Shown: one piece after another, positions 10,370-45,600 of the stretch
How positions within the stretch are numbered: position 1 is the stretch's first letter
Layout of the letters: each line of letters starts with the position of its first letter
Assembly (NCBI GenBank): GCA_030272155.1
Contig: CP126191.1
Coordinates: 10,969,001-11,033,000, forward strand
Direction of reading: 5' to 3'
DNA length: 64,000 bases
From: Tetradesmus obliquus
Lineage: Eukaryota; Chlorophyta; Chlorophyceae; Sphaeropleales; Scenedesmaceae
Notes under the pieces: model-generated
Seen by the model: only the letters and a program-made list of their open reading frames with translations
What the model was told of the DNA's origin: nothing
The model's database searches: none
Made by a program: the position numbers and the translations under genes

Positions 10370-13300
10370 ATGTCGCTGTCTGTGCTGACCCTCAACATAT
10401 GGGGCCTCTGGCTGGTGTCGAAGAAAAGACAAGAGCGGGTCAAGTAAGCACTTCAACAGGGCGGACTGAGGTCACGTGAAGAGCTTCAATTGCAACCTGC
10501 TGTGCTTGCACGCTGCTGCTAGTGATGCTGATGGCATAGACACTACTGCTACTGCTGCTGCTGCTGCTGCCTGTCCTGCAGGCACCTATGTCACTACTTG
10601 CGCACCTGCACAGAGGTGCGCCCTGAGAGCAGCCTTTCCAGACAAATTTCTGCTCTCAAACGTGAAGCAGCTGCTGAAGTGCCTGCTGCCAATGCCCTGT
10701 GGTTTACTGGCTGCATGCCAGCATCTGCACGTGCCGGTGCTGAGCCTGCCTTGCCACCGCTGCTGCTGCTGCAGGACGTGGTGCTGCTGCAGGAGGTGTG
10801 GGTGGATGCTGACGCACAGGCGCTCATCAGGGCGGGGCGCGAGGCAGGGCTGGCCCACGCCACACACTTCAGGTGAGGGCCACGCCACACACTTCAGGTG
10901 AGGGCCACGCCACACACTTCAGGTGAGGCCAGGCTGGCTCGCTTGGGCATGCCTCTGCTCAGGGCGCACAGCAGCAGGGCTGGAGCAGTATTGTCAACAG
11001 CAGCGGAGCAGCAGCCACACAGCTCTGCTTTGCTTGGGCCTGTACATACACAGCAAGCAGAGGCAGGTGGGCGCCCTCCTACTTGTCTTATACCTGACCT
11101 TGCCCCTTGCTGTCTGGTGCGCTGCTGCACCACACGCACCAGGTCTGGCGTGTTTGGCTCTGGCCTGGTCACGCTGTCACGCCACGCAATCAGCCGCCAC
11201 TGCTTCTGGCGCTACGCTGCGGGCGGCTTTGCCACCAACATCAGCTGCGGCGACTATTATGCTGGCAAAGGTGCGTGGCGTTGGGGGTGGGAAGCTACGA
11301 CCCCACTGGTGTTGTGAGTGTGGGCTGCGTGGGTGGTGGGCGCGTGGCCAGGCGCCAAAATGGAAGGTGTTGGCTTGTAGTTGGCGTTTGGGCAGCATCA
11401 GCAGCCATGTGCACCTTAGGCCCTAGCTGGTACGCGCTGTGACACCGCAACACCACAGATGATGCTGCCTGCAAGCAAACTGCGGCCAGCAGCGCGCAGC
11501 ACGCATTGCAGGCAGCTGCCAGCAGCGCCCTGTTCGCCCAGCTCAGGCTGGTTACCCTGTCCTGCATACATCAAATACACCAGCGCAATGCGTCCTGCTG
11601 CCGCTGCCGCAGGTGTGGGGTGGGTGCGCCTGGCCACCCCCCTGGGCGAGGTGGACGTGTTCAACAGCCACCTGCACGCCAACTACTGCCACGACTACCG
11701 CCAGCCAGACCCAGCCCTCACCCGCGCAGCAGCAACAGCAGCCGGCTCGCTCGGCGAGGAGCGCGGCGACACAGCCGCAGTGGCAGCAGCAGCAGCCGCA
11801 CTGGATGCTGCTGGCAGGGGCCGGCTGGCTGTGCCTGCTGAGGCGTGGCTGGGCAGCAGGCTTGCTGACGATGACGATGCAGGCGTGAGGCTGAGTCAGC
11901 TGCTGGAGCTGACTGAGATCATCCGGCTGGCTTCAGGCGATGCATGCAACGGCAACAGCCAACCTAGCGGCGATGCTGGAAGCGGCAGCAGCAGCAGTGG
12001 TGCGGCGCGGCTGGTGGTGCTGGGTGGCGATTTGAACTGCAAGCCGGATACATTGGAGCTGGACCTGCTGCGGATGAGGCTGCCTGGCATGAGGGACGCC
12101 TGGGCGGCAGCAGCAGCAGCTGGTGGCAGTGGTGACGGCAGCAGTGCAGCAGATGGTGATGGTGATGGTGGCAGCGAGCTGCCTGCCAACCCTGAGGGCT
12201 TCACCTGCCACGCGCCAGGCAACAGCTTCCAGCCGCGACGACAGGTGGGGCTGCAAAGTTTGAGTGCAGTTGCTGCCACAACTGGTACTTATTGGGTGGC
12301 AGTTTGTCCCTGCGTTCAAATGCATTCCGGGCATCTGATTGCGTACTCGCACAAAGTATCCAGCGATGTTGAACCGGCAGCGCTGCGCCAACAAACACCC
12401 GTAACAGAGACAGCCGGCAGGCTGCCACTGGCTGCGCAACTGCATGTGCTGCTGTTGCGCCTCTATGCATCGCCTCTTACAGGAGTATTGCAAGGCACAA
12501 CGCACCTGGCCACAATTAATATGGCGCACACCCGCCACACATCTATATTATCCTGCAACTGCCTCCCCTGCCCTGCCCCGCCCTGCCTGCCCTGCCCTGC
12601 CAGGTGCCTGAGCGCATCGACTACATCTGGAGCAACGGCACATGCGCCAGCGCACAGCTGGCACTGCAGCGCGTGCCGGGCACTTCGCTGTCCTACTCCG
12701 ACCACTTTGCGGTGCGCGCAACCCTGACACCACCCAAGCCCCAGCCCGCTGTCACCTCACCAAGCAAGGGCGGGCCAATGCGGCTGCTGCGCAGCCCCAG
12801 CAAGCAGCGCCAGCAGCAGCAGCAAGATGCAGCCGGCAACGGCAGCAGTGGAGAGGGTGCTGCGATGCCGCTGCAGCAGCGTGTGGCCACACTCATGGCC
12901 AGCCAGCTGCTGCTGGAGGAGGGCATGACCTGCTTTGGTGCCAGCAGCAGCATGCTGAGCATGGGGGGCGGCATCCTGCTGGCCAGCGTGGTGTATGCTG
13001 CTGTGGCGCTGCCGCTGCTGCTGCCAGATGTGGTGCTAAGGGGCTGGCTGCTGACTGTGGGCTTGCTTGCTGCTGGGCTGGTGGCGGGCCTGGGGCTGCT
13101 GCTGCTGATGATGGGCCAGGTGAGGCGGCTGGGGTGGAGCAGGCACATTCAAATGCAACTGCAGAGGAACGCATCGGACTCAGAAGCTGAGGGTCTCTGG
13201 GTCTGGATCAGCACCTGTGCATGCCGCAGCAGCGAGCTGCATATTGCCTGCGTGCAATGAAGCTTTGCGCATCCGCACTGTGTGTCGCTGGGACTGCAGG

Positions 13301-13581
13301 CACCGAGATAGACTACACACATGGCGGTGTGATGGCGCCCTAGATTGAAGTGACTGTTGCTTGTGCTGCTGCTGTTGACAAAGAGCTGTGTGTCACCTAG
13401 TGCGTTCACATTGCTTGTGTGCCTTTGCCTGCTGCCGCAGGTGGCTGACAAGACGCAGAAGCGCGCCCTGCAGAGCAGCTACCGCCTGCTGCGGGTGTGG
13501 ATGCAGGAAATAGGCCTGGACGTGCCGTACAGCAGCAGAAGCAGCAATTCAACAGAGCCAGCACCTGCCGCTGAGCAGTGA
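10370..13581 (+). CDS. Neutral sphingomyelinase (SMPD2-like), membrane-anchored phosphodiesterase
   Basis: Seven exons: 10370-10443, 10582-10615, 10775-10872, 11143-11270, 11613-12244, 12604-13119, 13441-13581 (540 aa). The fold is the Mg-dependent endonuclease/exonuclease/phosphatase type: Asn9 in TLNIWG, Glu43 in LLQEVW, GSGLVTLSRH near 74, His131 in FNSHLHANY, Asp251 and Asn253 in GGDLNCKPD, and the Asp355-His356 pair in YSDHF. These are the metal and catalytic residues of the family, which cleaves sphingomyelin-type lipids to ceramide; algal substrates may be inositol phosphoceramides. Two C-terminal hydrophobic helices, about 444-466 and 470-492, match the membrane anchor of animal SMPD2. 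A low-complexity Ala/Asp/Ser insert lies about 145-245. The 34-nt second exon is supported because it restores the exact spacing between the LNIWG and LLQEVW blocks. The donor of exon 3 is present in three tandem copies. Confidence 0.88.
10852..10927 (+). repeat. Three tandem 25-bp copies of an exon end plus splice donor
   Basis: The end of sphingomyelinase exon 3 and its donor (CACACACTTCAGGTGAG) occur three times with a 25-bp period, placing GT donors at 10873, 10898 and 10923. Only the first keeps frame with exon 4, because 25 and 50 are not multiples of three. Confidence 0.92.
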
Positions 13582-14199
13582 AGAGCACAGCCGCATGCAA
13601 TTGATCCTGAGTGGCGCGCAGCAGCACACGCTCGGCTGCTGACGAGGAACCAGCTAGTCGTGACGATGCCTGCGGCGAAGTGGCAGCTGACTGCTTTTAA
13701 CTTGAAGACAAAGTTACCTTTTTGTGGGTTTTGGCTCGATGTGCTTTTGCTGGCACGTGCTTATTCTGGTGGGGTGTACCATCAGCAGCACCAGTTCAGC
13801 CACCACTCACTTTGGTGACTGCTGAGTGCCATAGCATGTGTGGCGGCCAGCTGCAGCCACCGTGCCTTGCTCAAGGTATATGTTGCCATCTTGGGATGAT
13901 ACAACGCATGTATCAAGGCTACTGTAAAGTATCGGCGTCCTCTGCACAGCAGCAACTGACTCTCCGGAACCCGTGCTTGAAGCTTATGGCACAGTACAAG
14001 CGGAGATGGATGCATCAACACAAAAGCGACATATGGTTTGGTTTATTGACCTGGCCGTTTGCTGCGTTGCGCACGTGTCCATCGCAATGACAACTGTTAG
14101 AGAGGCTGAGCTACACAGCGTCTTCGCGACCAGAGATCGTTCTTCTTTGCAGAACGCAGCATGCGTTGTTGAACTAACTTATCAGAAGAATTTGTGACT
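13582..14199. other. Intergenic, likely acetolactate synthase promoter
   Basis: About 620 bp between the sphingomyelinase stop and the acetolactate synthase ATG, with genes head to tail. A TGTAA at 13922 could serve the upstream 3' UTR. No TATA box of good quality and no further gene is visible. Confidence 0.4.
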
Positions 14200-15823: not shown

Positions 15824-15860
<37 letters not shown>

Positions 15861-18800
15861 CAGACAGGCGCAGCAGCAGCAGCAGGCAGACAGGCGCAGC
15901 AGCAGGGGCAGCAGCAGAGGCAGCGGTGCCAGCAGCAGCAGCAGCAGCAGGCTGACGTGGTGCCAGCAGCCCACTGTGCGGCAGCAGCGGCAGTCCGTGG
16001 CGCGCAACGCCTCAGGAAGACGACATGGTGCTGCGGTGGAAGGCGTTTGTGTTGCTGTGCACGCGCAGATGCTTGCTGGTGTGTTTTAGTACACTGCTGC
16101 ATGTTCGGCAAGCATCAGCCAGCAGCCGCGTGCTTGTGGCAGCAGGTGCCCCATCACTTGTGCTGTCTGTCACCACTGCCCTCCACGCACCCAACAACAC
16201 CTGCGCAGGGCGAGATCTTTGCTGCTGAGGGCTATGCCAAGACCACGGGCCGCGTGGGCGTGTGCATCGCCACCAGCGGGCCTGGCGCCACCAACCTGGT
16301 CACTGGGCTGGCTGATGCCATGATGGACAGCGTGCCCCTGGTGGCCATCACGGGACAGGTGCGGGGTTGGTCGCAGCAACTTGGCTGCGTGCAGAGCGAC
16401 TGGATGGTGTTGGGGTGTGTGCGCAGTGGCAGGAACAGCATGTAAGCAGCAGCCCGATTGTCAGAGTCTGGTGCCGGTTGCGCTTGGACTGTGTGCACCT
16501 GCAGTTCACAGCAGCTGAACAAGCAGTTCGCTGGTGTGGGCGAGCATCATCCGCTGTTCATGCCGTCATATTATTGTAAGACACACCAGGCTCTAGTTAA
16601 TGTACTATGTTTGCCGCTGCGTTTGTCACCCCTGCCTGCTGCTGCCTTCCCTCGCTGCAGGTGCCCCGCAAGCTGATCGGCACTGACGGCTTCCAGGAGA
16701 CGCCCATCGTGGAGGTGACGCGCGCCATCACCAAGCACAACTACCTGGTCATGGACATCGAGGACCTGCCGCGAGTGATGAAGGAGGTGCGGCGCTCCTG
16801 GCAGCTGGCTTTGATGACGCGCGTGCGTGCGTGTTTCTTTCGCTGGCATGTGCTTTGCATACACCAACATGTGTGGTTGTTGCCGGCATGCAGCAGCTGC
16901 AGCCTTGACAAACAAACTGGCAAGCTTTCACATCCGCTTTCGGCATCTGCACAACTGTACACACAACTTCACGTGTATGCGCATGTCACCCCTCGCCACC
17001 TTGCTGTTGCTTGTCCCTGCAGGCCTTCTACCTGGCGCGCACCGGGCGCCCTGGCCCCGTGCTGGTGGACGTGCCCAAGGACATCCAGCAGCAGCTGGGC
17101 CTGCCCGACTGGGACGCGCCCATGGCCATCTCCGGCTACATGAGCAGGCTGCCGCCCCCACCAGAGCCTGCTGCACTGGCGGCGGTGCTCAAGGCGCTCA
17201 AGGGCGCCAAGAAGCCTGTGAGTGGCTGGCTGTGGGGGCCCAGCAGCAGCAGCAGCATGTTCATTCTTGTTTTGAACCTGATCTGACTGTGGGTTGTTGC
17301 GTACATGTCGTGGCATCCAGTGATGGGCTGGCTGGCGGGAGCCAAAACAAATGCTGCTGAGATGGGGTGTGGAAACATAGCAAGCTGCACTCGGTCAAGT
17401 CACAGGCGCACATGCCTGCAGGCAGCTTCACGCGCGGCGTTGATGCGGCACCTAACCTCACCATGAACCTGCCTCGCCTCCTGCTTGGCGTCTGCTGCAT
17501 GCATCCTCCCCCGCAGATCGTGTACCTGGGTGGCGGCGCCCTGGACGCCGCGCCCGAGGTGCGCGAGTTCATCGCCCGCACCGGCATCCCCGTGGCGCAG
17601 ACGCTGATGGGCCTGGGCACCTTCCCCGTGGGCGACAAGCTGAGCCTGCAGATGCTGGGCATGCACGGCACCGTGTACGCCAACTACGCTGTGGACCAGG
17701 TGCGGCTGGGTGGCTTGGGGGTGGCTGGGGGTGGGATGAGGTGCTGAGCTGTCTCGACACGTGGTGCAACGTGGTTGTGCACATGTGCCTGCGGTTGTGT
17801 CGCGCGAAGACCGCTCTAGGCATTTACTGCTGTGCATGTAGCAGCAGGCGGTGTCCGCATGCTCAGCTGCTCACCAGCCCTGCTGTGCCTCTGCCTGCTG
17901 GTCATGTTGCGCTCCGCAGGCCGACCTGCTGCTGGCCATGGGTGTGCGCTTTGACGACCGCGTGACTGGCAAGCTGGAGGCCTTTGCGCAGCACGCGCGC
18001 ATTGTGCACATAGACATCGACCCCGCGGAGATCGACAAGAACAAGACCGCACACATCCCCATCTGCGCAGGTGCGCCTTGCGCGTCTTACTTTGTTAGCT
18101 GCAGCGCCGCACAGCATGTCTGCTGCAATGCTGCGTGGCCGCCGCTGTGTTGACGCTGGCTTTGCTTTGCGCTTGCCTTGCGCTTAGCGCGGCACACTCC
18201 ATCTTGTGGTGAACTTACATATGATGCCGCCATCTCTCCTGTCGACCTTCCGCCACTTCGCCTGCCTCCCTTCAGACGTGAGGCCTGCGCTGCAGCTGCT
18301 CAACAAGATGCTGGAGGCAGACCCGCTGCCTGCGGAGCACTTCCAGGCGTGGCGCGAGGAGCTGGACGCGCAGCGCACCAAGTTCCCCATGCAGTACCCT
18401 GACAGGAGCGACGTCATCGCGCCACAGCATGCAGTGGACGTGAGGCCCAGGCACAGCAGCAGCAGCAGCAGCGGCAGCGGCAGCAGTCGTGGCTTGGTTG
18501 AAGGAGGTGGCCAAGCAGGAGCGACAGGGACTGGTGTGTAATGCCAGCTGCATGTTTACAGTATGGCTTGTGGTGATGTGGCGGTGTCGCTGTGGTTTCA
18601 CCTCTGAGCTAAGTTCTGTGCTTCCCCCGGCTGCTCAAACCTCGCAGGTGCTGCACCAGGAAACCAACGGCGAGGCCATCATCACCACCGGTGTGGGCCA
18701 GCACCAGATGTTTGCGGCGCAGTGGTACCCGCTGCCTGAGCCGCGCCGCTGGGTCACCTCCGGGGGCCTGGGCAGCATGGGCTTTGGCCTGCCTAGCGCG

Positions 18801-20188
18801 CTGGGTGCTGCTGCTGCACACGATGGCAAGAACGGCCGGCCGAGCCGCGTTGTGGTGGACATTGATGGTGATGGCAGCTTCCTGATGAACTGCCAGGAGC
18901 TGGCCACTGCTGCGATTGAGAAGCTGAACATCAAGGTGCTGCTGCTGAACAACCAGCACCTGGGCATGGTGGTGCAGTGGGAGGACAGGTTCTACAAGGT
19001 GAGGCCAGGCAGGGCTGGCGGTGGCAGCGGCAGCGAAGTGGTGGTGGCAGTGTTGGTGTCAAGTCACAGACAGGTTCTAGAAAGTGAGGTGAGGCAGCAG
19101 GCTAGCGGCGGCTGCAGCAGCAGCAGGGGTGGTGGCAGCAGAGGACTGAGGCACATGTGCTGTGCATAGCTGCTGCAGGCTCTGGTGTAAACTGGGGCCG
19201 TGTTTGTGCATCACATCATGGATCATGCTGTAGTCCAGCTATGTCTGCAGCTACGGCAGCACATCGTGTGGACAGCCACCCTCCTGTGCGGGTGCACACC
19301 CTCTCACATCACCCACCTGCCCCGCCGCTGCCTTACCTGCAGGCCAACCGCGCGCATACCTACCTGGGCAAGCGCGAGGCTGAGTGGCACGACACACAGA
19401 ACGAGGCAGACATCTACCCAGACTTCCCACTCATGGCCAAGTCCTTCGGCGTGCCAGGTGCGCAGCAACGCATAGCACATGCATATTGCCTATATGCCAA
19501 ATTCAATCTCACTGTCAACAGTCACAGACGGAGGCTCAAGAAGCACAGGAAGTGCTCCTGCTGCCTCTCAGCTGGTGCTGTGGCTTGCATGCCAAGAGCC
19601 CGGCTTCACTATGCGGTGCTTGCACACATGGGTCTTTTGTTTGCATGATGACTTCTGCATCGCCCCTCGACCGTGTTTGCTGCTGCTGTCGCTGCTGCTG
19701 CTGCTGCTGCTGTCCCCGCAGCCAAGCGCGTGATCAAGAAGTCTGAGCTGCGTGGCGCCATCCGGGAGATGCTGGACACTGAGGGGCCCTACCTGCTGGA
19801 GGTCATGGTGCCGGTGAGCATGGTGGATGTGTAAATTGTATGGCAACAACAGCAGCAGCAGTAGAGCATGCGGTGCAGTCGGTGCACAGTTGTCATGTGC
19901 TGGGGCAGGCTTGCTGGGGTATGAGATGCCTTCCCTGGCAGGCATGATTGCCCGTGGTGTGCTGGCTCGGCATCATTGAGATCTGTCGCTGCTGTGCTTT
20001 GTTGAATGAAGAGCATGTGGTCACCCGCTGACTAAGTGTACACGCTCTGACTGCTAATGCCGTGCTTGCTCTGCTGCTCGTTTTACCGCTGCCGCCCGCA
20101 GCACATTGAGCACGTGCTGCCCATGATCCCCGGTGGCGGCAGCTTCAAGGACATCATCACCAAGGGAGACGGCTCCATCGAGTACTGA
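14200..20188 (+). CDS. ALS: Acetolactate (acetohydroxyacid) synthase catalytic subunit, plastid
   Basis: Seventeen exons join in frame: 14200-14289, 14367-14407, 14492-14567, 14688-14717, 14851-14896, 15309-15388, 15710-15814, 16209-16358, 16661-16786, 17023-17217, 17517-17699, 17920-18070, 18276-18439, 18648-18998, 19343-19457, 19722-19813, 20102-20188 (693 aa). The enzyme condenses pyruvate with pyruvate or 2-oxobutyrate, the first common step of branched-chain amino acid synthesis, using thiamine diphosphate, FAD and Mg. Residues 1 to about 95 form an Arg/Ser/Ala-rich leader consistent with plastid import. The catalytic Glu155 lies in RHEQ, and the ThDP motif runs from GDGS (553-556) to NN (580-581). 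Residues aligned with plant inhibitor-contact sites are Ala133, Pro208, Asp386 and Trp590, all the usual types, and Gly676 in place of the plant Ser. Exons from 15309 on are certain; the five small leader exons rest on phase and splice signals only. Confidence 0.93.
15825..15950 (+). repeat. CAG trinucleotide-rich tract in an acetolactate synthase intron
   Basis: An uninterrupted AGC run of about 12 units at 15825-15859 is followed by alternating CAG clusters and GGCAGACAGGCG units. It sits just inside the intron after the 15814 exon end. Length polymorphism between strains would be expected. Confidence 0.9.
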
Positions 20189-20263
20189 GCAGCAGCAGCA
20201 GCCTGAGTACTGAGCACCATCATGCTGAGTACTGAGCAGCAGTGCGGCGTCATCGAGTACTGA
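20178..20263 (+). repeat. Four copies of the acetolactate synthase stop-codon context
   Basis: GAGTACTGA, which encodes the final Glu-Tyr and the stop codon, recurs at about 20180, 20206, 20229 and 20255. The last copy retains a longer match to the coding end (ATCGAGTACTGA). CAG runs separate the copies. Confidence 0.85.
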
Positions 20264-21524: not shown

Positions 21525-21704
21525 TCAACCCTTCTGCTTGAGCGTGCTGCGCCTCAGCGCTGCAAGCAGAAGGGCTGGCGCACGACCAGCCCTGCTACTG
21601 CAGCGCAATCCTGCCCGCTCAGCCGTTGTGCTTGAGCCTGATCTCGTCGCCCCAGCCCTGCTGCTGCAGCCGCCTCAGCCCTTCTGCTTGAGTGTGATCT
21701 TGTC
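21525..21704 (-). repeat. Three copies of the coatomer beta C-terminal codons and stop
   Basis: On the minus strand the coding end ([10 protein letters not shown], stop at 21675-21677) is followed by a diverged copy ending GDEIRLKHNG plus stop at about 21619, then by a third ending TLKQKG plus stop at about 21525. Only the first is in the reading frame; the others lie in the 3' UTR. Confidence 0.85.
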
Positions 21705-24700
21705 TCCCAGGCTGAGCGCAATGCCCTGCGTCTTGCTGCGGATGCGGATGTAGCCCGCCAGGCGGCCGCCTCCCGTGTCCTCCACGCTCACGTTGACCAG
21801 CGCGTCCTCGCCAAACACGCTGCGCGCGTACAGGTTGGCGGCCGCGTAGCCGCAGCCGCCCTCCAGTGCGCGCGGCGGCGTGAGGCAGCGCATGTTGGTG
21901 CTGGTGATGATGTGCTCCAGGAAGGCGTTCACGTCGGTGATGCTGGTGTTGATGGCCACCTGTACAGTTGGCAGCAGATGGGTGCGAAGGGGAGGGGGGC
22001 GTTGTCAGCAAGCAAGCAAAAGGTGATCCTAGGCGTGTGGTGCCACACACTACGCTTGCAGGAGGAGCTTGCAGGCTCATAGCAACTCACACGCTTGCCC
22101 TTCGACCATGATCCACCCCGCCACCACCCTTGTACTCCAAACCACTGCTTGTTTGACTGGCGCTCAATGCTAGCCCCACCCCCTGCATCACACAGCTCAC
22201 CTTGTTCTCCCACTCAAACTCCGCCCACATGTTGCGGAAGGTCACGTCAGCACAAACAGCCGGGCTGATGTAGTCCATGATGTCGATGTGGATGTCAGCC
22301 AGCACCACCACGCTGCGCTCCGCGTAGCCGCTGCCCTCGTACACAATGTTGCCAAAGATGACACCCGTCTCAGTGCTGGACACCTGCGATACAAAACAAG
22401 AACGAGGGCAAGACAAGAATAATCAGCGTTGGATTGAAACCAAAGCAACACGCCACTTGCCCGCATGACCGCTCGTCCGGAAGGCGCCAGGCAGCCAGTG
22501 GGTTGTGCCCTGCATCACTTGTAGACACGGCACCAGCTCCTTCCCTAACCAGCAGGCATGAACAACCAAGACAAGTGCGCGCTCACAGTGCCGCTGTTGG
22601 TGCCCAGAGCACCCTCCATGCAACACACACAGCTCCATTCCAGCCCTTCCCCGCGATCTTCAACCCTCATGAGCGGTAGATCGGCTCGCTGGGCTTGTGA
22701 CTGAGGTAGGTCCGTCCTATACTTTGGTATTGGTATTGTCAACACCTCTAGCCTCCACCGCTCCCCCCACCTTGATGTTGGCGCGGATGACCTTGCTGGC
22801 CCCTGGTGCCAGCGTGTACTGCTGCAGCCGCTCCACCAGCTTGAGGTCGCCCATGGTGGCCAGCTCAAGCGTCAGGTTCTGCAGCGTCTCGTTGGTCCTG
22901 CAGCACGAAAGGCCAGGTGAGCGGCCAGCCAGTCAGTCAGGCAGGCAGGCAGACAGGCGGGCAGCAAGTGAGACACACAGGTAGGAGCAGCTCCAGCGTC
23001 AGGCTCTGCAGCGTCTCATTGGTCCTGCAGCCGCGTGAGCACAGGCAGGCAGCCACGCAGGCAGCCAGGCAGCAAGCCAGACATACAGGTAGGGACACGA
23101 CCAGGAGAGGACGTGCAGGTGCTGCTGTGCTGCCTTGTTGGTGCAGTACGCACTCTGTTCTGAAGCCATCAACAGCACAGACACAAAAATCACACCCGCC
23201 CACCTGTTGAGCACGGTCACGTCCATCACGATGTCGTACTGGTGCACCGTCACGTAGGCCTCCGCGTACACCGGGTCGCTGAAGCCGGTCAGCTGTAGCA
23301 CGCGGTTCAGCCGCCGCGCCTCACTCTCAGCTGCCTCAGCCAGCCCCGTGGCCCGCGCAAGGTCGCTGGTGACCTGCATGTTGCAGCAGCCAGTAAGGGC
23401 AGGTCGCGAGCAGTAGAAGTTGAGGGCAGCTGGCATGGGTGCAGTACATGTCACCGTGTGCAGATGTTCTGCATGGAACACTGTCACGCTGCTGGCGCAC
23501 GCAAGCAATGGCACATGCAGCACCAGACACGCAACACAGGTACGCAGCCGCCTCCAAGCAACTCACAGCACACACTGCCGCACACTCAGCCTGTCCTGCA
23601 GCCATCTGCCCCTTCTGCAATGTTCAGGCGTTCAAACAGCTTGTATCTTTCCCCCACTACACTTTCACACGCCCCACCTGGTCCTCCAGCTCCAGCTGGC
23701 TGAGCCCGCCCTTCCTGTTGCTGACCAGGTGGCCAAAGTCAATCAGGTCGTCAGGCTGCGCGTAGCTCTTGGCAGACTCAGCGGCAGCCTCCGCAGCCTC
23801 GCGGCTCTGCTTGTCGCTGGTCAGCGCGCTGAAGGCGGCACGGCAGTCGTCCAGCCACACCTGCGGCAAACGGGTCATACCGCGCAGCAGGTGAGGCACA
23901 GCCGCGTGTTGTTGGCATGCCCTTAGCACGACGTGCACCGCCTTTAACAACAACTATTGCAGCAGCCCTCAGCTAGCCCTAAGCACGCCTGCTGTGGCCA
24001 GGGCCGGTCCCCTGCCCCCTCACCATACCCTCCCGTCACCTTGACCATGTCAGGCTCAGGCGCCGCCAGCCCCTGGATATTGCAACAGCCTTCAGCTCGC
24101 CTGCTGTGACCACTACCACTGCCCTATTGTGCCCCCCACTAGCCGCCTCACCTTGACCATGTCTGGCTCAGGTGCTGCCAGCACCTGGATGCACGCACCC
24201 ATGCGGTCCCTGCTGTCGTCATCCAACGGCGTGGGCAGCGCGCCACTCTCCCCCAGGCGTAGCATGGCCACGATGGCCAACATGGCACTGGCGGAGGCGC
24301 GGTGCAATGAGGCAGCAGGCACGCCCAGGCTGCCCAGGCGCAGCACCAGCTTGGTCAGGCTGGCGGCAACCACGCCTGCAGGATGGTTTAAGCGACACAG
24401 TGTTGTTGAGTAGCGGTTGCCATCTCATCTGGCGGCAGTACAATGCCAGCGCATGTGCAGTCAAGCATGCCACTATCCTGCCGCCAGTAACGTGTTGTGC
24501 GCTGCATGCCCTGCACACACTCTCCTGCAGCGCCGCCAACTGCCAGAACGGCTGGCCCATAGGCACCCACTGGGGTCGAATGGACGCCCCCCACCCTCCC
24601 ACCCCAACCCAGCCCCCCCTCCCTGCTGCCCCCCCTCCCCCTCACCTCCCAGGAAGAAGTCTCCCACCAGCAGCAGCGAGCGCAGATTAGGCGGCAGCGG

Positions 24701-27700
24701 CCCAGACACGCTCAGCAGCGGCATCTCCACCACAGCAGCCTGGCGCAGCAGCAGCGGCAGCAGCAGCAGCAGCAGCGCGGCGGCAGTTTGACAGACAGCA
24801 AAAGAATCAGACACATGCGTTGAGCAGTGATAAACTGTTGCCAAGTAGCAGCCCGCAGTGCAGCTGGATGTCACGGCAACACCAACAGCACATGCCTTGT
24901 TGTGGCAGCAGACGCCACGTCGTACGGCACTCAGAGAAGCCACATGACTGCACACTGTATTGCACATGCAAAGAAGAGCCGCTGTGCCCCACCTGCGATG
25001 CGTATGTGCCGTCTGCAAGCACTGCCGGCCGTTTGCTGCCGCCCATGGAGGCTGCTGACGGCAGGCTAGCGGGGGCGTCCTTGGCGGCTGCTGTGTCAGC
25101 ATCATCCTCTGCAGGTGCGGCGGCAAAGGCGGCAGAAGCAGCAACACAAGCACAACAAAGGCAGTAAAAGCCAGCCCTGCAGCGAAGAAATGACTTGCAA
25201 CAGCGTTCTTGCAAGCCAACAGCCAGATGCTCGAGCACAAGTGCGCACAGATGCTGATGCGGAGGGCCACGATAGCAGATCACATTACGATCAGCGTTGT
25301 GTCAGCTGCCGCGCCCACCTGACTCCAGCTGCAGCAGCGGCAGCGGCCCCAGCCCAGCGGTGATGACGCCCAGGGCCGCCTCCACCTCCTCCCTGCTGGC
25401 ACTGTACTCGCCCAGCACCCACAGCGCACAGCTCACCTGACGCAGCGGGGGGCAGGGCAGCAGAGATTACAATTAGTGCAACAGGCTGGAGTAGGATTAA
25501 AGGACTTCCACGCAGGGCAGTGGCAGGGCAGCAGATATAGCTGTTAGCGTAAGGTTGGAATGGGGTCCTAGGATGCAACTCATAGTTGGCTGCCAGCAGG
25601 CGCTGTGTGGAAGCTGCTGCATTCCAAAGATCTGCCAAGCTCATGCGCTGGCACATGTGTCATGCGCGCCGCCTGCGCATCTGCTGTGCGCCATGCAGCG
25701 CAGTTCTGCAAAGCGGCTGCAGCAAGGCTGCTTTCATTGCTACTTCAGCCTGACCACCGCATCGCGCGGCCTGCGCTCACCACGCGGCTGGCGCGTATGC
25801 TGGGGAAGGTGTCTGCCAGTCGCTCCAAGATGCTGGGGCGCAGCGCGGGATGCGTCTCGCAGATCTCACGCACGAAGAACACCACGTCCAGCGCGCTCGA
25901 CACCTGGCGGCGGCAGCAGCAGCGGTGGCAGGACAGAGAGGCAGTGTCAGAAGAAGAGCAGCAAATCGTTTGCGTGCAGCCTGCGGTCCCTGCTGGCGCA
26001 GGAGCTGTGCAAATGGCGACCTGGCCGAACACAGCAGCCGCCAGCAGCATACAGTGCCCTACCAGGGCAGCAGTGCTGGCAGCACGTAGCATATCACCAA
26101 CCAGTGCAAGCTCAGCTGCCAGCTGCCTTGCCGCCCTCACACGGGTGACCTGGCCGGTTTGGGGGCCCGATGACAGGCCTATGGGCAATTGGAAAACACA
26201 ACCTGGTCAAAGCATGGACCGCTGGTCCTGTCTGCAAGCACCACCACCACGTTCCCCCCTCACCAGCGGGTCTCCCAGGAAGTCCATGAGCAGGTGCACC
26301 ACGCTGGCCGCCACCTCGGGGAACTTGACCGCGCAGGAGTGGATGGCGGCCACCAGCATCTGGCGGTACTCAGGGCCGCGCTCGCTGTCAGCGGACTGCG
26401 TGCGCATGATCTCCTTCTTGAGCACCATCACCACCTGCGGCACAGGGTTGGGAATGCAAGGCAGTTGAGTGTGTGCATAGTCTACGTCTTGAGCACCATC
26501 ACCACCTGCGGCAACAGGATGTACAGGTGGAGAGCAGTGGGACCAGCATTGCCAGCGCAATTAGAGGCGTATGGTGGGTTTTGTGTAGTGCCAGAGCGCG
26601 GCAAGCAGGGAGGGCCGGCAAGACATACGCGCAGCTGCGTACAGCGCATGTGTGGGGGAGGACTTGCTGCCTACCACACGCCCTGGCACCACCCTGGCAG
26701 CAGCAGCAGGTCAGATTACAAACCACATACACCACAGGAAAGCACACCAGCTGTTGCAGGTGCTGCTAAACACAGCAGCTGCCAGCTCACCTCATCAATG
26801 TTGCGTGGTGTGAGCAGGTCCAGCGTGATGTCCAGCGTCTTACGCCGGATGTCCAGGTTGGGCGACGACAGCGCGCGCAGCACGTCAAGCAGCTGCTCCT
26901 GTGGGGGTGAGGGGTGCAGGGTGGCGCACCAGCACATGCAGGCAGACAACAGAGGGGTGTGAGTACATGGAGATCAGGTTGCAGAGCTGGCTGAGCGCAC
27001 CACACTACACACCTGCCTGTCTGCTGGTGCCCCCACAACACACACCCGCAGCACCACATGCAGCACAACCTCCCAGTCACTCACACCGTTCTTCCCTCGC
27101 CTGCCCCAGCCCCGCAGTGCAGCACTCCACTCCAAGCAGCACAGTCCGGCTCAGCCCACACACGCCGCACCTGCATCACGTCCCTGTGCTTGTCCTTGAG
27201 CTCCTGCAGCCTGTCCAGCACGATGAGCTTCACGTTGTTGTCGCTCTGGGCCACCAGCAGCTGGCAGTAGCAGTTGGCGGCGGCCCGCACCGCAGTGGGC
27301 GCCTGGCTGAGGCTGGTCAGCGTCACCGCGCACTCGTAGGTGACGGCCGCGCTGGGCGACTGCAGCAGCGCCAGGATGATCTTTATGTACTTGCCCTTGG
27401 CATCAGGCTTGGTGCGGCACACCTGGGAAACGCAACACGGCAGGCAGGCAGGCCAGGATTAGAAGCACATGTCAGCCGTGCAAAACAGCCCGCTGTGGTG
27501 TGTCAGCTGCATGCAAGCGTGTGCTTGAGCACATAGAACAGCTAGTCAGCAGCGAGCGCGCATCCTTCCACTGCACCAGAGCGCTGCGACTGCTGGCAGG
27601 CGCAGAGCCCATGCCGGCATGCTGCTGCTTGCAACACGGTGCGCGTCTGCAGCTGCTGCTGCGGTGGCTGGTTCCCGCCCTGTGCGCCAGCCAATTATGC

Positions 27701-29935
27701 AGCCAGGCTGCAACAGTCTGCGCATCAGCAGCTGCGCTGCGCAGTGCCCCCGCCAGGCCTGACTCACGATGCCGATAAGCTCCAGCACTGCCATCTGCTG
27801 TGCGCCTGCCCCAGCTGTACGCCTGTTCCTAACCCTGCCGTGCAGCTGGCCCCAACCCAGCTGTGCGCCTGCCAAAATCCATTCACGCAGCCGCCCCTGA
27901 CCCAGCCGTGCAACCGTTCTCAACCCCGCTGTGCGCCTGCCCTCAGCCCACTCACGATGCGGATGAGCTCCAGCACTGCCATCTGCAGGATGTCGCCCCA
28001 CACCGCCAGCTGGTCCAGGTGCTCAAACAGGTACTTCACAGCACGCTCCTGCAGGGAGGCAGCAGCAGCAGCACGCAAGCGTGAGGTGCACGCAGGCGAG
28101 CTGCAAATCAGCAAGCTGTGCGAGGAGCCATGAGGTTCCTCCTGGACTGTTGCTGCCGCGGTCAAGCTTATTTCTGCAGCTGCTGAGGAGCTGCCCTCAT
28201 GCAGTCCTGCCTATGCAGCTCGCGCCCACATGGCTGCGGCAACCGCCCCGACTGCTGTCGCCACTGCTGCTGCTGCTGCTGCTGCTGCTGCGGGCTGCAG
28301 CGTGCCGCACCTGGCTGTGCTGCGTGAGCAGCATGAGCGCGTTGCGCTTGGCTGACACGTCCTGCTCCTGGCCCAGGAAGCGCTCGATGAGCTCGTCCGC
28401 GTCAGGCACCAGCAGGTCGCCCTTGGGCAGCTTGCACAGCGCGCTGATGGCCAGCACCGCGTTGCGACGCACGTAGCTGTGCCTGCGGGGCGCAAGGCCA
28501 GCGCGGTGAAGAGCGCGTGAGATGCTATAAATATCAGCACACAGTTGTTGCTATTGCTGGTGCTCTGCATCTTGCAACGCTGCGACACGCACAGCGGTGG
28601 AGTTGCATTACAGCGCACCACTTCCACAGCTTGCTGCTGCGCTACTGCGCTACGGCCACTGACTGCTGGCTGCGCCACTGCCTGCTTCTCCCACACACCA
28701 GCACACCAGCATCTCTTCGCCTAGCCGCACCTGTGCTCCAGGTTGGCCAGTATGGAGGGCACCAGCCCACCCCCAGCCCCACATACACATGCTTTCCACT
28801 GCATCTCGTTGCTGCCTGCCCCCGCAGCACCACTGCATGGCCGGTACCAGCACGGCAGCTGCTGCCCCCCACCTGTGCTCCAGGTTGGCCAGTATGCTTG
28901 GCACCAGCGGCTCCAGGATCTCTTCCTCACGGATGCGGCACAGGAAGCGCAGCGTGACGCCGCGGATGTACTCGTTGGGGTGCTGCAGGTTGTTGCGCAG
29001 GTTCTGGCAGATGAGGATCTGCGGGGGAGCGGCACCGGGCGAGACGCAAGGGGCGTGGTAGTGAAGCGGAGCAGCAGCAGCAGCGAGGGGCACTACTATG
29101 TACATACAAGCTGCTGTACGAGAGCACTAAGCACGTGGGACTGCCACCGAATAGCAAGCCTAGTTCCGCTTGTTGTTTGACTGCGTGCTGCAGAGCACGA
29201 GCACACCACTGCTGGCACTACCAGCCACCAGCTGCTGCGTACAGCTTGAAAACGCTGCGCAGTCATTGTGTTGTTGCACTGCTTGCACAGCAACACAGCT
29301 GAAGAGTACTTGCTGCAACTCTGCACTGGCATGTTGCACTGATGCGGTGCTGGCGCGACTTCTGCATCTGCAAACGGTGCCGGTGGATGTTTTGATCGTC
29401 AGCTGGCGCTGCCAGCCAACTGCGGCATGCTGATCAGCTCTGGGAGGTGCGCTGCGGCAGTGTAGTGCTGTACTCCGCCTTGCACTGCTGCTGCAGCTGG
29501 CACTGCTACGAGGTCCTGCTTTTTGGGTGCAGCCACACTGCTGTACGCACCATCTCTGGCAGCACTTTGCCTGCAGAGTCCGTCTTCTCGATTGCTTCCT
29601 GCAGGATCAGGGCAGCAGCAGCAGGTCAGCACAGCGCTGCTTGTTGGTGCTCTGCTGCACCACTCCTGCCTTGCAGGCGCTAGATTTGCACTTACCAGGT
29701 ACAGAAGCAGCAGTTTCTGCACGGTATGGTCCTCTGACGGCAGCACATAGCGCACGATGGTGATGAACAGCTGTGGTAACTGCTCCCCACTAAGCAGCAG
29801 CACTATTGCCTTCTGCATGGCCAGGATCTTCTGCTCCGTATCACTGCCCTCCAGTGCCTCCTTGATCTCGCTTGCTGTCGACTGTTTATCATTGTAAATC
29901 AGCATAGAGCAGCTGCGTTCTGTTGCGTTCGCCAT
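21675..29935 (-). CDS. COPB1: Coatomer subunit beta (beta-COP), COPI vesicle coat
   Basis: Eighteen exons on the minus strand, 5' to 3': 29935-29696, 29598-29551, 29018-28873, 28482-28311, 28048-27956, 27422-27171, 26898-26791, 26434-26264, 25903-25781, 25436-25319, 25108-24993, 24739-24646, 24375-24152, 23860-23678, 23373-23204, 22897-22771, 22383-22201, 21959-21675. The product is 950 aa, close to the usual length of about 950. It is recognised along its whole length: the N-terminal adaptin-type solenoid ([54 protein letters not shown]), the DGTY and GDFFLG linker region, and the C-terminal appendage ending [12 protein letters not shown]. Beta-COP is part of the heptameric COPI coat on Golgi membranes. 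Five introns or flanks carry copies of adjacent exon edges, listed separately. It converges on ALS; its 5' end faces the PRMT1 3' end. Confidence 0.96.
22862..23030 (-). repeat. Duplicated acceptor and start of coatomer exon 16
   Basis: The 5' part of exon 16 with its acceptor (22862-22903) is repeated at about 22988-23030 inside the preceding intron, about 127 bp away. The copy reads [13 protein letters not shown] with an intact CAG acceptor. The flanking GGCAGGCAG-rich sequence and a GACACACAGGTAGG-like piece are repeated too, so the unit extends beyond the exon. Confidence 0.88.
24037..24190 (-). repeat. Duplicated end and donor of coatomer exon 13
   Basis: The last 40 or so bases of exon 13 with its GT donor (24149-24190) recur, diverged, at 24037-24078 within the following intron, 112 bp away. 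The copy still encodes [10 protein letters not shown] followed by gtgacg. Confidence 0.88.
26417..26516 (-). repeat. Duplicated acceptor and start of coatomer exon 8
   Basis: A 25-bp block covering the acceptor and first codons of exon 8 (26417-26441) is repeated exactly at 26487-26511 in the upstream intron, 70 bp away. Both copies present a CAG acceptor before VVMVLK. Confidence 0.88.
27760..27995 (-). repeat. Duplicated end and donor of coatomer exon 5
   Basis: The exon 5 end (MAVLELIRI plus gtgag, at about 27951-27990) has a diverged copy at about 27764-27800 reading MAVLELIGI plus gtgag. Between them are several further CTGTGCGCCTGCC-type units, so the intron looks built from tandem pieces with an overall period near 185 bp. 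Confidence 0.85.
28728..28907 (-). repeat. Duplicated end and donor of coatomer exon 3
   Basis: The exon 3 end (LANLEH and the donor, 28870-28907) is copied at 28728-28765 inside the following intron, about 142 bp away. The copy keeps SILANLEHR in one frame and a GT donor. Confidence 0.88.
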
Positions 29936-34705: not shown

Positions 34706-34918
34706 CTTGTTCAGTTGCTTTTGAGTAAAGCTAGTGAGATGTGATGATAACCCGCGTGCACACGGGCGTCGGGACAAGCTCAGGCGTCTGGTAGCAGCTG
34801 CAGTACAGTGCCGAGCATGCAACATCACGAAACGCAAGGCTGTGCGGCGTGTTCCTTAGCAGGACTTCGAGCAGCAGAATGTTACCCGAGCAGTCACTGA
34901 CACTGTCAGTAACAAGGT

Positions 34919-35998: not shown

Positions 35999-36033
<35 letters not shown>

Positions 36034-37894: not shown

Positions 37895-38608
37895 GGCCTG
37901 CGGCTGGAGCTGCTTTTAAATGTATCTTATTTAGATTACCTTGAGGTTATGTGGGCATGAGCAGGCAATGGGCTAGCGCTCACGACCCGGAGCTGCTTAC
38001 AGTTTGGGCGGTGAGCTTTGATACGAACTGATCACAGCTATGTAAGGAGGGTACTGGTGGCATTTTCTAATGCTGTTCTCAACACAAGAAAGGTTCAGCA
38101 ATTGGTAATGGTGGTGTAGGCCTGGCCCTCCTGTGGCAAAACCCATCATGGGTTTGACATGGCATGTCGAGCCCTGACGAAGGCCCCTTGAGTATAAGCA
38201 AGTGATACACTGCTCGGCTAACTAAATCTAGCACCATCAGAAAGTTGCTGCTGCGTCGACGTCTTGCACCTTCGGTACACAGCTGACACCTCCTTCCAGG
38301 CTGGTGCAAGGATATAAGCAGCAACTCGGTGGCTTCACGACAGCTGTGGTTGCATCAAATATGAACGTGAAATGATATAGAATTGCCATCAACCTATCAC
38401 CTTAGTAAAAGGTATAGGCGTGGCGCACTGCGGGCACTCAACAAGTCTGGTGCCCAGCTTTGACTCAGCTGCTGCTGTGCGCGGCGGCAGCATCAGCATG
38501 GCACGATCTGCAGACCGCTTGGTAGGTGCCAGCATTGTCAGCAACATACTATCCATGCAAGTGTCAGCAAACCAGTGACCACAGCTGCTTGACATCTGCA
38601 AACATTGT
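37895..38608. promoter_or_regulatory. Divergent intergenic region between SNUPN and NEK kinase
   Basis: About 710 bp separate the two start codons on opposite strands, so it must contain both promoters. The stretch 37910-38060 is A+T-richer than its surroundings. No clear TATA box was identified. An open minus-strand frame at 38389-38880 is a shadow without recognisable domains. Confidence 0.45.
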
Positions 38609-41600: not shown

Positions 41601-42026
41601 TCTGTTCCTGGCTCAGCAGTGCCAGTTTGCAAAGATTGATTGGCACCATGCAGTGTGATAACATGACAGTGATTTTCATGTACGGGTACCTTACTGATGT
41701 GTGACACATTGCATTGACGCTGAATGTTGGCTTCCTGCAGGCCCGGCTCAGCGCGTCCGCCGCCTTTTGCAGTGGCAAGCAGCGCCAGCGCAGCAGGCAG
41801 GCTCAACCAGACCACAACGTCAGCGCAGGAGGCAGCAGCAGGCGTGTGGGGCGTGAAGCCTGTGCCGCCGCAGTTTGGCCGCAAGCGCTGCAGCGACCTG
41901 ATGGCCACTGGGCCTGGCATGCGGGGGGCGGCTGGGGCACGTGGCGGTGGGCATGGCGCAGCACCTGTGGCTGATGATGCCACAAGCTACTGCAGCACGT
42001 CGTACCAGGGCACGTCTTACCACTAG
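38609..42026 (+). CDS. NIMA-related (NEK) serine/threonine protein kinase
   Basis: Ten exons: 38609-38690, 38912-38991, 39174-39234, 39486-39553, 39737-39793, 40071-40166, 40381-40530, 40659-40862, 41063-41493, 41741-42026 (504 aa). The kinase domain spans about 7-265: Gly-loop [11 protein letters not shown] (14-24), catalytic Lys36 in YALKQVK, HRD at 131-133 in [14 protein letters not shown] at 151-153 in place of [12 protein letters not shown], and [13 protein letters not shown]. Sequence style and the short N-terminus are typical of NEKs, which in green algae often act in cilium and cell-cycle control; that role is inference. The C-terminal half, about 267-504, is Gln/Ala/Pro-rich and low complexity, ending in a Ser/Tyr-rich tail with no domain I know. 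A TGTAA near 42307 may be its polyadenylation signal. Confidence 0.92.
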
Positions 42027-42640
42027 ATCTGTTGGACCATGGCATGGCCAGCATGGTGCTGGGAATGTGTTGCCCAGGATGTACGCGGTGCACATGTGCA
42101 GGATGTGGCTTTCCAACAACTTCATATTTCGATTACGCTGGCATGCTGACCATCCGTGACGCAGCGGATGGCTGCATGCTGCAAGAGCACTGGCAGCAGG
42201 TGCTTGTTGAAAGAATTTGCCAGCCAGGCCGCAACGCCGTGACCAGGTCACTGCGCACCATTTGACTGCGTGCAGACAGCTTTGATAAAGAACTAGGCTG
42301 GGACTTTGTAATCTTGCACTTTGGTAGTTCTGGCTGGTATGCGACAGCACGTCGAGAGTTGGCAGTTGCCTGCAAGAAGCGTGCACTGCATCTCGGGGCT
42401 CAACAAAGCTCAATCAGCTACGCCGTAGCCCGGGGCAGTGACAATGTTACCCATAGGCGCCTAGGCGACCGACAGGCCTGTACAGACATGCCTGGCTAGC
42501 CAATGAGGCTGACACCACCATATGCACTACTTGCAACAGCATTGGGGAGCCAGCAGCCCAGACGTCGGTGTCAAAGCCTACTATGTGATAGCCGCTCCCA
42601 GCGACCTGCTAGAGCCACTGTGCAGAGCCACCCCAATGTG
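42027..42640. other. Convergent intergenic region, NEK kinase and SET gene
   Basis: About 610 bp holding the two 3' UTRs. No additional gene or repeat is recognised. Confidence 0.45.
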
Positions 42641-45600
42641 TTACGTCCAGCCGTCGTCATCATCACTGTTGCTGCCATACACGGCAGCCAGCTGCTCGGG
42701 TGTCGGCTGCGCGCCACCACCGGCTGCCAGCGCTCCTACTGCCGATTGCCAGGCTGCTACTGCTTCTGCACAGCCCAGCAGAGCTGTCTTCTCTGAAATC
42801 AGAGCGCGCAGCACACCTATACGTATCTGCAGGCCTTCTGCCTCTGCGCTCTCTGCTATGCTGTCACCATCTTGCTGCTGTTGCTGCTGCTGCTGAACCA
42901 GCTGCTGCAGCTCCTGCCTGTCAGCATCTATGGTTGCAGGATACGCTGCTACGCATGCCTGCACTGCCTGCTCCAGCAGCTGCAGCACTCGCCGCTCAGT
43001 CGCCAGCGACACTGGAACAGACAGCCGGCCCATCACGCGTGCACACAGCTCTACATCGCTGCCCTTGCTGCCGCTGCGCCAGCCTGCCTTGATCAGCTCT
43101 GCATCTGATGCTATGCCAGCGCGCAGTGCCGCCATGCAGGTGACGTCAGGCCCGCTGGGTGTGAGCACCAGCGCTGGCGGGCCACCCGTGAGTGTGGTGA
43201 GCGCCTCCAGCAGTGCTGCGTTGCGGGGGCCCCGCGGCTGCAGGTGCTGGCTCAGCAGTGCGTCATAGCTGCGGCAGTGCGACAGCAGCAGGAAGCAGCA
43301 GATCAGCAGCTGTGCCTATCAGCCGCGGGCTAACACAGATGAAACGGACTTTCACAAAAGGGCTACAGCCACCAACAGGAGTGACATGGCAGGGGCTCGT
43401 TCTGCACATGCCTATGACCAGGCAGCACGTTATGCAAGCCGCTGCGTCTCACCGTGGGTTGTCGCTGGCGCCCTCGCCCACGCAGCCGTGGTCCATGATG
43501 AGGTCAGCCCATGATAGGCCCGGCCCGTGGCTGTCAAACACCTCAGCGCCAGGCGCGTACGGCTTGTGCGCTGCCAGCAGCGCCGCGCGCGCCTCAGGGT
43601 CATACGCCAGCATGGCTCCCTCACCTGGCAGCAGGATCATGCACGACACATCAAAATGGGTGAGACGGGGCCAAACCAGACTTGCTGTTCAGCAAAAACC
43701 AAATGACAGCTACGACACACCCAGGCTGGCAGCAATGCGCAGCAGGTGGTGAGTGGCATGCATGACACGCAGCCAGAGCATTATCACGCAGCGAAGCACG
43801 CGCAAGCCAGCATAACATAACACGTGTTACAGACGTAAGCTCAATCAACTGCCAGGCGCCGCACCTGCCTCGCTGCTGTGCCGCAGCATGTCTGCCCAGG
43901 GCACAAGCGCCAGCACTGCGGGCCCGTGCGCCTGCCAGGAGCCGTACCAGCTCATGTCAGGCTCCAGCGGCAGCTCAGGCTCGCTCATGTCCAGCTGGAA
44001 GGAGCGGCCCAGCAGCACGGCAGCGGCCCAGGCCACGCTGGCCAGGCTGACCAGCGGCGACTGCAGAGCAGCAGAGGGGTGGGGTGGGCAGTGTACGAAT
44101 GTCAAAGGCAGGGGAGGCGGGGGAAGGAGCACAGGTGCTGGAATGAGCAAGGAATTGGGTTTGGAAATCTCCCCACTAACAGAACAACAGGTTGCTGCTG
44201 ACCCTTGAAATTGCTGCAATGCTGTTGCGATGGTGGTGTGCAGACACAGGCGTGCCGCAGCAGCTGTCAAGTCAATGCTGCGCAGTGCGATCGACCGCAC
44301 CTGTGTCTGCTGCTCCCAGCGCTGCGCAACCTCCAGCTGGTTGGCACCAGCAGCTACCAGCTGCTCAGTGTCCTGCAGGCAGCACAGCAAGATAGTCACA
44401 GCAGGTGAAGCTTGACCATGGCTGGGCGTAGACAATATTGCTGCCACAGCTGCTGCACAACACAGGAACATGTGCCGCGCGCATCACAATCACTCCATGC
44501 TACCCCTGCTGCTGCCCTTCACCAGTCCTGGGCGCCCTACCAGTGCTGATGCACTAGTGCTGTGTCAGGCCGCCTCTCAACGCGCTGCCAACCCTGCGCT
44601 GTGCATCATCAGCCGAGCCGAGGGCGCCGGCAGCCCTGTGCCTCACCTCATGCACCTGTTGCAGCCCTGTGCCTCACCTCATGCACCTGTTGCAGCCCTG
44701 TGCCTCACCTCATGCACCTGTTGCAGCCCTGTGCCTCACCTCATGCACCTGTTGCAGCCTGTCAGTCAGCAGCCGCAGCATGGGCGAGCCAGCCAGCTGG
44801 CCCTGCAGCTCACTGCCACACAGCAGCGGGTGGTGGCGCTGCGCACAGCAGGAGCAGCGCGTGCAGATGAAGTGAACCACGGTTGAATTGTTTGAGCTTG
44901 AAGAAACGTGCTGCACTGCAATATAATGTGACTGCACAACAATGGGTGTTGACAGGCACAAGCGGCCTGGGACATGATGAAGGCAGCTGCTGCTGCGCCC
45001 TGACATCATCATTCATCTGCTGCCAGTCCGAGCTTTCAGACTCTGTCGCGTGCCACACTAGCAGCATTCAGCTGCCTACGCACCTGCTGCCCCAGCACTG
45101 CGATGTATGGCGCCCAGAAGCTGTCAGCCCCAGCAGCACGCTCGCATAGCAAGTGCAGCACCAGCGCCTGCAGCAGGTAGTGCCCATCAAATGGTGTCAG
45201 CAGCCATCCCTCTCAGCCCAGGGGGTGTGCTGTGGTGAGAGTCCTTGAGCATGCATAGCAGCCAGCCCGTAGAAGCAGCTCAATGCTGTCACTGCTGCTG
45301 ATGACATGTTGACTGCGCCGCTTTCATGATGCTCTGGGTGACAAACACGACCAGGTGTCCATGACTGCTGCAGCAAGTGATGCTGCACGACTAAGGCTGC
45401 GTAGTTCTGTGCTCTAATTGTGCGTGTTGGTTGGCTGGCTGGCTGGGCTGGGCCAGCAACGCACCTGCCACTCAGGAAGTTCTGCCGACTTGACAAATTT
45501 GCCACACAGCTTGCTTTTTACTGCTGTGTTTGCAGTCATAAACAGCGTATCCGGAACTTGCAGCAGTACTTGTGATTCCTGAATGGCGGCTGCAGCCATC

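What the first reader, a model, noticed from the sequence alone, without database searches (positions are those of the whole stretch)
10852..44758. Tandem micro-duplications concentrate on exon-intron boundaries and stop codons
In four unrelated genes (sphingomyelinase, acetolactate synthase, coatomer beta, SET protein) I see nine cases where a 25-185 bp duplication spans an exon edge plus splice site, or a stop codon. The copies range from exact to clearly diverged, so the process is continuing. Models of intron gain and growth by duplication of AGGT-containing segments predict such traces. Chance or simple microsatellite slippage would not favour exon edges, though I did not count duplications elsewhere in introns. 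It could be a genome-wide mode of intron growth and of new splice-site supply in this lineage.
Basis: partly seen in the sequence, partly recalled or inferred. Interest (0 to 1): 0.78.

Follow-up and report, generated by a model that had tools for sequence, protein, structure and literature searches.

The report
Exon-edge copies inside algal introns
In this genome, probably a green alga's, about one sampled intron in twenty carries a dead, decaying copy of the neighbouring exon's edge with its splice site, a trace of local DNA duplication that lengthens introns and leaves decoy splice sites but shows no sign of making new introns.

Summary
The nine cases can all be matched, and there is a tenth. 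I tested 304 kb: the window plus 240 kb of the same genome, with a home-made gene finder (65 genes, 397 introns). Spaced copies of exon edges lie beside 19 of 691 real splice junctions, against 21 of 1558 points inside introns (odds ratio 2.1, p=0.025). The added sequence alone gives 2.2 (p=0.029); the window alone is not significant. Simulation says about 1.4-fold of this is easier detection, because the working exon copy cannot decay, so true concentration at exon edges is modest and not clearly significant. The copies look dead: differences are spread over codon positions (16/19/23), and using the copied splice site would break the protein in 18 of 21. Introns with a copy are longer (356 vs 281 nt). 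No sign of AGGT-type intron gain. So: intron growth and decoy splice sites, best explained by break-repair duplication, as proposed for Daphnia introns. One thing does not fit. In 14 of 21 cases the intron part of the presumed unit shows no homology, though neutral whole-unit duplication predicts it in 82-92%; and all 22 junction hits reach the exon end. Short junction-anchored copies or gene conversion are needed. That part is unresolved.

The parts
10855..10928 (+). 25-bp unit x 3, exact, exon end plus donor of the sphingomyelinase-like gene (exon 10775-10872)
   Evidence: Pfam Exo_endo_phos 46 bits
18963..19138 (+). tenth case: ALS donor (exon 18648-18998) and copy at spacing 83; exon and intron parts both shared, old
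20180..20263 (+). ALS stop: GAGTACTGA four times, first is the real end
21525..21692 (-). coatomer beta stop: 18-bp end motif three times; real stop at 21675-21677
22861..23031 (-). coatomer beta acceptor (exon 22771-22897) and intronic copy, spacing 127; intron part also duplicated
23975..24190 (-). coatomer beta donor (exon 24152-24375) and intronic copy, spacing 112; intron part also duplicated
26400..26518 (-). coatomer beta acceptor (exon 26264-26434) and intronic copy, spacing 71; copy carries an in-frame TAG
27762..27986 (-). coatomer beta donor (exon 27956-28048) and intronic copy, spacing 188; the gene finder called the copy a 27-nt micro-exon (27768-27794)
28725..28908 (-). coatomer beta donor (exon 28873-29018) and intronic copy, spacing 142; weak flank homology (z 2.6)
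   Evidence: single copy in genome
44630..44762 (-). 31-bp unit x 4.2 at the donor of a SET-family gene (predicted exon 44740-44802)
   Evidence: Pfam Rubis-subs-bind 26.3 bits

Best explanation
Neutral products of local break repair. A short segment straddling an exon edge is duplicated in place, for example by fill-in and joining at a staggered break. If the copied segment includes the junction, splicing from the original site still restores the protein, so the extra exon edge is stranded in the intron (or 3' UTR) and decays; the intron grows and carries a decoy splice site. The same happens inside introns but fades sooner, because both copies decay; inside exons it is purged. Shown: the copies exist, are local, look non-coding, differ in age, would usually break the protein if used, and sit in longer introns. 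Inferred: the break-repair origin and the purging. Not covered by the simplest form (a tandem duplication of the whole unit): two thirds of the cases match only in the exon plus splice motif. I attribute these, tentatively, to a second repair outcome (a short copy inserted, or a captured spacer) or to gene conversion refreshing the exon part.
For: Range of identity 0.81-1.00 and differences at codon positions 16/19/23, 25 synonymous, 32 nonsynonymous, 1 stop in 767 sites of 21 cases. Strictly local: coding-to-noncoding pairs peak at spacings 80-160 bp. Whole-unit duplications with shared intron part in 7 of 21 (flank z >= 2.5), whose introns are longer by about one unit. Exact young arrays at three donors (25x3, 31x4.2, 29xn) beside similar arrays in introns and intergenic DNA. 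Detection bias of 1.4-fold reproduced by simulation. Precedents: PMC4202315 (abstract and passages), PMC4974935 (passages), PMC8355091 (passages).
Against: Flank homology in only 7 of 21 where simulated whole-unit duplication gives 82-92%, and exon part never above 55 nt where about 40% should exceed 62. In the 14 without flank homology, intron length minus the whole unit is too short (215 vs 281, p=0.03) but minus the copy alone fits (274.5, p=0.76). All 22 junction hits reach within 7 nt of the exon end. Cases cluster in few genes (p=0.0009). Recent paralogues show introns diverging only about twice as fast as coding sequence (5.0 vs 2.4%).
Confidence: 0.5

Rival explanations
1. Junction-anchored copying: exon ends plus splice motif are copied into the adjacent intron by a process linked to the junction, for example through splicing intermediates or RNA-templated repair.
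For: 22 of 22 hits reach the exon end; 14 of 21 lack flank homology, including copies 96-98% identical to their exon (94259, 157114), and their introns are longer only by the copy; clustering in genes.
Against: Donor and acceptor cases are about equal (10 and 11 of 21), which a sense-RNA template does not predict easily; 7 of 21 duplicate the intron part; a weak group signal of flank homology remains in the other cases (combined z 2.0-2.4 with three scorings, 0.8 with the fourth).
Confidence: 0.2
2. Old whole-unit tandem duplications whose exon copy is kept similar by gene conversion or unequal exchange with the selected exon while the intron parts drift apart.
For: Whole-unit and exon-limited cases share the same spacing range, about 60-160 bp apart from one at 260; weak group flank signal.
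Against: Conversion should also have kept intron parts alike at first; introns of the exon-limited cases are too short for an added unit (p=0.03); gives no reason for exon parts of at most 55 nt.
Confidence: 0.15
3. Detection and survivorship alone: duplications fall anywhere and those touching an exon are merely seen longer.
For: Simulated advantage 1.4-1.5-fold, 1.6-1.7-fold at identity >= 0.9, against observed 2.1 and 2.9.
Against: Explains most of the enrichment but not the exon-limited form or the missing intron homology.
Confidence: 0.1
4. Functional alternative splice sites or poison exons kept by selection.
For: Most copied donors are strong (10 of 12); one copy forms an in-frame 27-nt candidate micro-exon.
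Against: No codon-position constraint; 18 of 21 would break the protein; copied acceptors mixed (4 of 10 strong). Poison exons are not excluded without RNA.
Confidence: 0.03
5. Intron gain by tandem duplication of AGGT-containing exon segments.
For: Copies usually carry AG|GT or CAG|exon; the 25x3 array resembles the 24-bp fission yeast case cited in PMC4974935 (passages).
Against: No excess of introns with matching ends once repeats are set aside; copies lie inside existing introns.
Confidence: 0.02

Closest known systems
Internal direct repeats of young Daphnia pulex introns, attributed to staggered double-strand breaks (PMC4202315; abstract and passages seen)
   Same: Repeats inside introns, proposed passive trend to greater intron length by break repair
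   Different: There in newly gained introns; here at exon edges of introns with no sign of recent gain, with copies of 20-55 nt of coding sequence
Potato RdRp duplication across an intron-exon boundary (PMC4974935; passages seen)
   Same: A tandem duplication spanning an exon edge with its splice site
   Different: There it made a new intron; here the copies stay inside the old one
Small tandem duplications at broken DNA ends by CST-Pol alpha fill-in (PMC8355091; passages seen)
   Same: Size scale of tens of bases, in-place duplication
   Different: Mammalian cells; no link to splice junctions
Direct repeats near intron borders (PMC11782384; abstract seen)
   Same: Repeats at or near splice sites
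   Different: Short (mean 11.4 bp) and compared between the two ends of one intron
Introners (PMC9860276; passages seen)
   Same: Change intron content in fast-evolving lineages such as green algae
   Different: Multi-copy mobile introns; the four loci searched here gave only their own place

Membership tests
Break-repair tandem duplication | Adjacent direct copies of one whole segment | tested here: inconclusive
   flank homology in 7 of 21 spaced cases; exact arrays at three donors
Break-repair tandem duplication | Junction signatures against the empty allele | not testable with these tools
   no relatives or strains held
AGGT intron gain by tandem duplication | Two ends of one intron similar in register | tested here: not met
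   4 of 368 vs 7 of 1472 null; the hits are repeats or the repeat gene
Introner | Many similar copies across the genome | tested here: not met
   four loci searched, each only at its own place; the tool skips very common words
Conserved alternative exon end | Coding constraint on the copy | tested here: not met
   codon positions 16/19/23, 18 of 21 break the frame or bring a stop
Conserved alternative exon end | Use in RNA | not testable with these tools
   no RNA data
Enrichment at exon edges beyond detection bias | Excess over intron interiors greater than simulated advantage | tested here: inconclusive
   2.1 observed vs 1.4-1.5 simulated; 2.9 vs 1.6-1.7 at identity >= 0.9

The most novel reading that the evidence does not exclude
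A junction-anchored copying process: exon ends of about 20-55 nt, cut at the splice junction plus its motif, are repeatedly copied into the adjacent intron, mostly 35-135 nt away, seeding about 5% of introns with dead exon ends and strong decoy donors. DNA breakage alone would not know the junction, so this would point to a link between splicing or its RNA intermediates and DNA repair.
Probability: 0.2. Interest if true: 0.8.

Novelty: new variant of a known kind. Interest (0 to 1): 0.47.

Why it matters
If it holds genome-wide (23 or so cases per 304 kb would scale to several thousand), the genome still carries datable traces of how introns lengthen and how decoy splice sites arise. Comparing strains would show exactly what is inserted, whole junction-spanning units or exon ends alone, which makes a debated step of intron evolution directly testable. 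It also warns gene predictors: such copies look like exon ends and micro-exons, and my own gene finder called two of them exons.

Tried and rejected
Copy derived from a diverged haplotype or coding paralogue: differences should be mostly synonymous; they are 25 synonymous to 32 nonsynonymous plus 1 stop.

Mobile element between the copies: four loci searched are found only at their own place.

Introns scrambling fast in general: recent paralogues in b1 85.8-87.2 kb show coding 2.4% and noncoding 5.0% divergence with few gaps.

Templated insertion from random nearby DNA: should also copy exon interiors; 22 of 22 hits reach the junction.

Empty-site comparison with paralogous introns at b1 83-88 kb: too diverged to help.

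Captured spacer between two copies: for acceptor cases the spacer would have to bring its own branch site and pyrimidine tract, which I judge unlikely (reasoning, no call).

Assembly artefact: no reads to test it; copies carry their own substitutions and some stops and indels.

Earlier counts mended: the 23-case set was searched without masking and held three rows absent from the masked search (b1 101780, b1 113184, b2 14877; 113184 is CAG repeat) and set aside b1 3785; its numbers (codon positions 17/21/26, 21 of 23, flank 8 of 23) are replaced by the masked set (21 cases, one further hit in the tandem-repeat gene dropped). The intron-length test improved with that, for which I raised the novel case slightly. 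A looser intron control gave 16 hits in 767 intron points and 7 in 788 intergenic points. In one search, flank p was at most 0.05 in 6 of 24 and at most 0.2 in 15 of 24.

Gene finder: the first two versions fused genes. The third gives all hand-built coatomer beta exons plus the 27-nt micro-exon, and the ALS exons except one acceptor, but fuses ALS with the gene before it; both genes were in its training set, so this is not an independent test. The organism was not identified; 'green alga' is my inference from composition and gene structure (recalled knowledge, no call).
Full report
WHAT WAS CHECKED. I hand-built two gene models: coatomer beta, 18 exons, complete (Pfam coatomer beta domains, E=4.1e-53 and 1.3e-52), and acetolactate synthase (ALS), 13 exons with the start left open (PDB hits to chloroplastic acetolactate synthase). 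Both read cleanly. The finding does not list its nine cases; I could match nine by gene, and a gapped self-alignment found a tenth at the donor of ALS exon 18648-18998. Coordinates are in the parts list.

SAMPLE. To count duplications elsewhere I added C1:3,000,001-3,200,000 ('b1') and C2:5,000,001-5,040,000 ('b2') from the same genome, trained a simple gene finder starting from the two models and kept 65 predicted genes with 397 introns. The total is 304 kb, 0.3% of the genome. Self-alignment at offsets of 15-600 bp gave 160 hits at score >=18; a control at offsets 5000-5585 gave 11. Pairs of a coding and a noncoding copy peak at spacings of 80-160 bp (24 hits) and drop after that (5 hits from 160 to 515 bp); 16 more at 515-3015 bp come mostly from a few gene families.

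IS THERE ENRICHMENT? Exon edges against the adjacent intron score >=18 in 29 of 794 edges, against 0 of 1538 mismatched pairs; 24 of the 29 reach within 7 nt of the junction and 6 lie in one long tandem-repeat gene. In a matched design (up to 80 nt of exon or intron against 160 nt of intron; introns of at least 160 nt), spaced copies were found at 19 of 691 real junctions, 21 of 1558 points inside introns and 5 of 2452 intergenic points. Against introns the odds ratio is 2.1 (p=0.025); for identity of at least 0.9 it is 14 of 691 versus 11 of 1558, 2.9 (p=0.008). Outside the discovery window alone it is 15 of 506 versus 17 of 1262 (2.2, p=0.029); inside it 4 of 185 versus 4 of 296 (p=0.49). 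One event can be counted at several intron points, and some intron hits derive from exon-edge events or arrays. A simulation of neutral duplications of 60-160 bp at donor junctions, with the working exon evolving at a quarter of the neutral rate, gives junctions a 1.4-1.5-fold detection advantage, 1.6-1.7-fold at identity 0.9. Most of the concentration is thus expected without targeting; the remainder is not clearly significant.

WHAT THE COPIES ARE. The masked set holds 21 spaced cases (10 donors, 11 acceptors; one hit in the tandem-repeat gene dropped), that is 21 of 397 introns. In 767 aligned exon sites they differ by 16, 19 and 23 at codon positions 1, 2 and 3, with 25 synonymous, 32 nonsynonymous and 1 stop change, and 3 indels. 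That is a dead copy beside a conserved exon. Use of the copied splice site would shift the frame or bring a stop in 18 of 21. Copied donors are strong (10 of 12 above the 95th percentile of random intronic GT), copied acceptors mixed (4 of 10 above it). Introns with a copy are longer, median 356 (n=21) versus 281 nt (n=376), p=0.004. AGGT-type intron gain left no trace: 4 of 368 introns have similar ends in register against 7 of 1472 mismatched pairings; at score >=16 in any register it is 8 of 368 against 11 of 1472, but these hits are CAG/CTG repeats, the tandem-repeat gene or the coatomer beta copy.

WHAT DOES NOT FIT. The intron part of the presumed unit is recognisably duplicated (z >= 2.5) in 7 of 21: window 28872, 24151, 22897; b1 84443, 107447, 164287; b2 9663. 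In the other 14 it is not. Neutral whole-unit duplication predicts flank homology in 82-92% of detected cases and an exon part above 62 nt in about 40%; the longest here is 55 nt. The simulation used a somewhat different null for the flanks than the real test. The copies at b1 94259 and 157114 are 96% and 98% identical to their exons without flank homology, while recent paralogues show introns diverging about twice as fast as coding sequence. In the 14 cases, intron length minus the whole unit is too short (215 vs 281, p=0.03), while length minus the copy alone fits (274.5, p=0.76); in the 7, length minus the unit fits (248, p=0.60). These tests are small and uncorrected. All 22 hits reach within 7 nt of the exon end. 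Against this, a weak group signal of flank homology remains in 18 cases of the earlier set (combined z 2.0 to 2.4 with three scorings, 0.8 with the fourth). Cases cluster: 5 in coatomer beta and 6 in an Omp85-family gene of 28 placed (a list I compiled by hand), p=0.0009. Gene-model quality could add to this.

HOW IT PROBABLY WORKS. The simplest account is break-repair duplication straddling exon edges. Selection spares events that include the junction, because the first splice site still gives the right protein, and the second exon edge is stranded in the intron. Daphnia authors proposed that internal staggered breaks give introns a passive trend to greater length (PMC4202315, abstract and passages). 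A potato gene shows a duplication across an exon edge, there with a new intron (PMC4974935, passages). Small tandem duplications by fill-in at broken ends are experimentally known (PMC8355091, passages). The exon-limited majority needs more: a short inserted copy, gene conversion, or a process anchored at the junction. Without alleles or relatives I could not decide.

NOVELTY. Searches of the paper library (result lists seen, capped) showed no title or abstract on exon-edge copies inside algal introns; the library lacks most subscription journals. Duplications at splice junctions are known as single cases; the frequency here and the exon-limited form are the new part.

LIMITS. Home-made gene models outside two hand-built genes; a small sample from two contigs; no RNA, reads or relatives. 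Names: ALS and coatomer beta are secure; the sphingomyelinase-like gene hits Exo_endo_phos (46 bits), the SET gene only the Rubisco LSMT substrate-binding domain (26.3 bits).

Noticed in passing
window 54561-54635: 36-bp tandem pair (97%) whose unit holds the palindrome GGTACAAGGCATGCCTTGTACC; intronic by prediction.
   Followed up: no
window 52229-52375 and 52597-52746: 150-bp direct duplication, 77% identical, 368 bp apart, in predicted intergenic DNA.
   Followed up: no
window 27768-27794: The coatomer beta intronic copy is 27 nt between CAG and GTGAGT and in frame, so it could serve as a micro-exon; no RNA to test it.
   Followed up: partly
b1 (C1:3,000,001-3,200,000) 1400-1703: Three copies of one exon end with donor in the same intron; the last copy has lost its GT.
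   Followed up: partly
b1 2627-2959: Exact 137-bp tandem duplication including predicted exon sequence.
   Followed up: no
b1 127071-135092: Two neighbouring predicted genes with long internal tandem repeats, periods 372 and 129.
   Followed up: no
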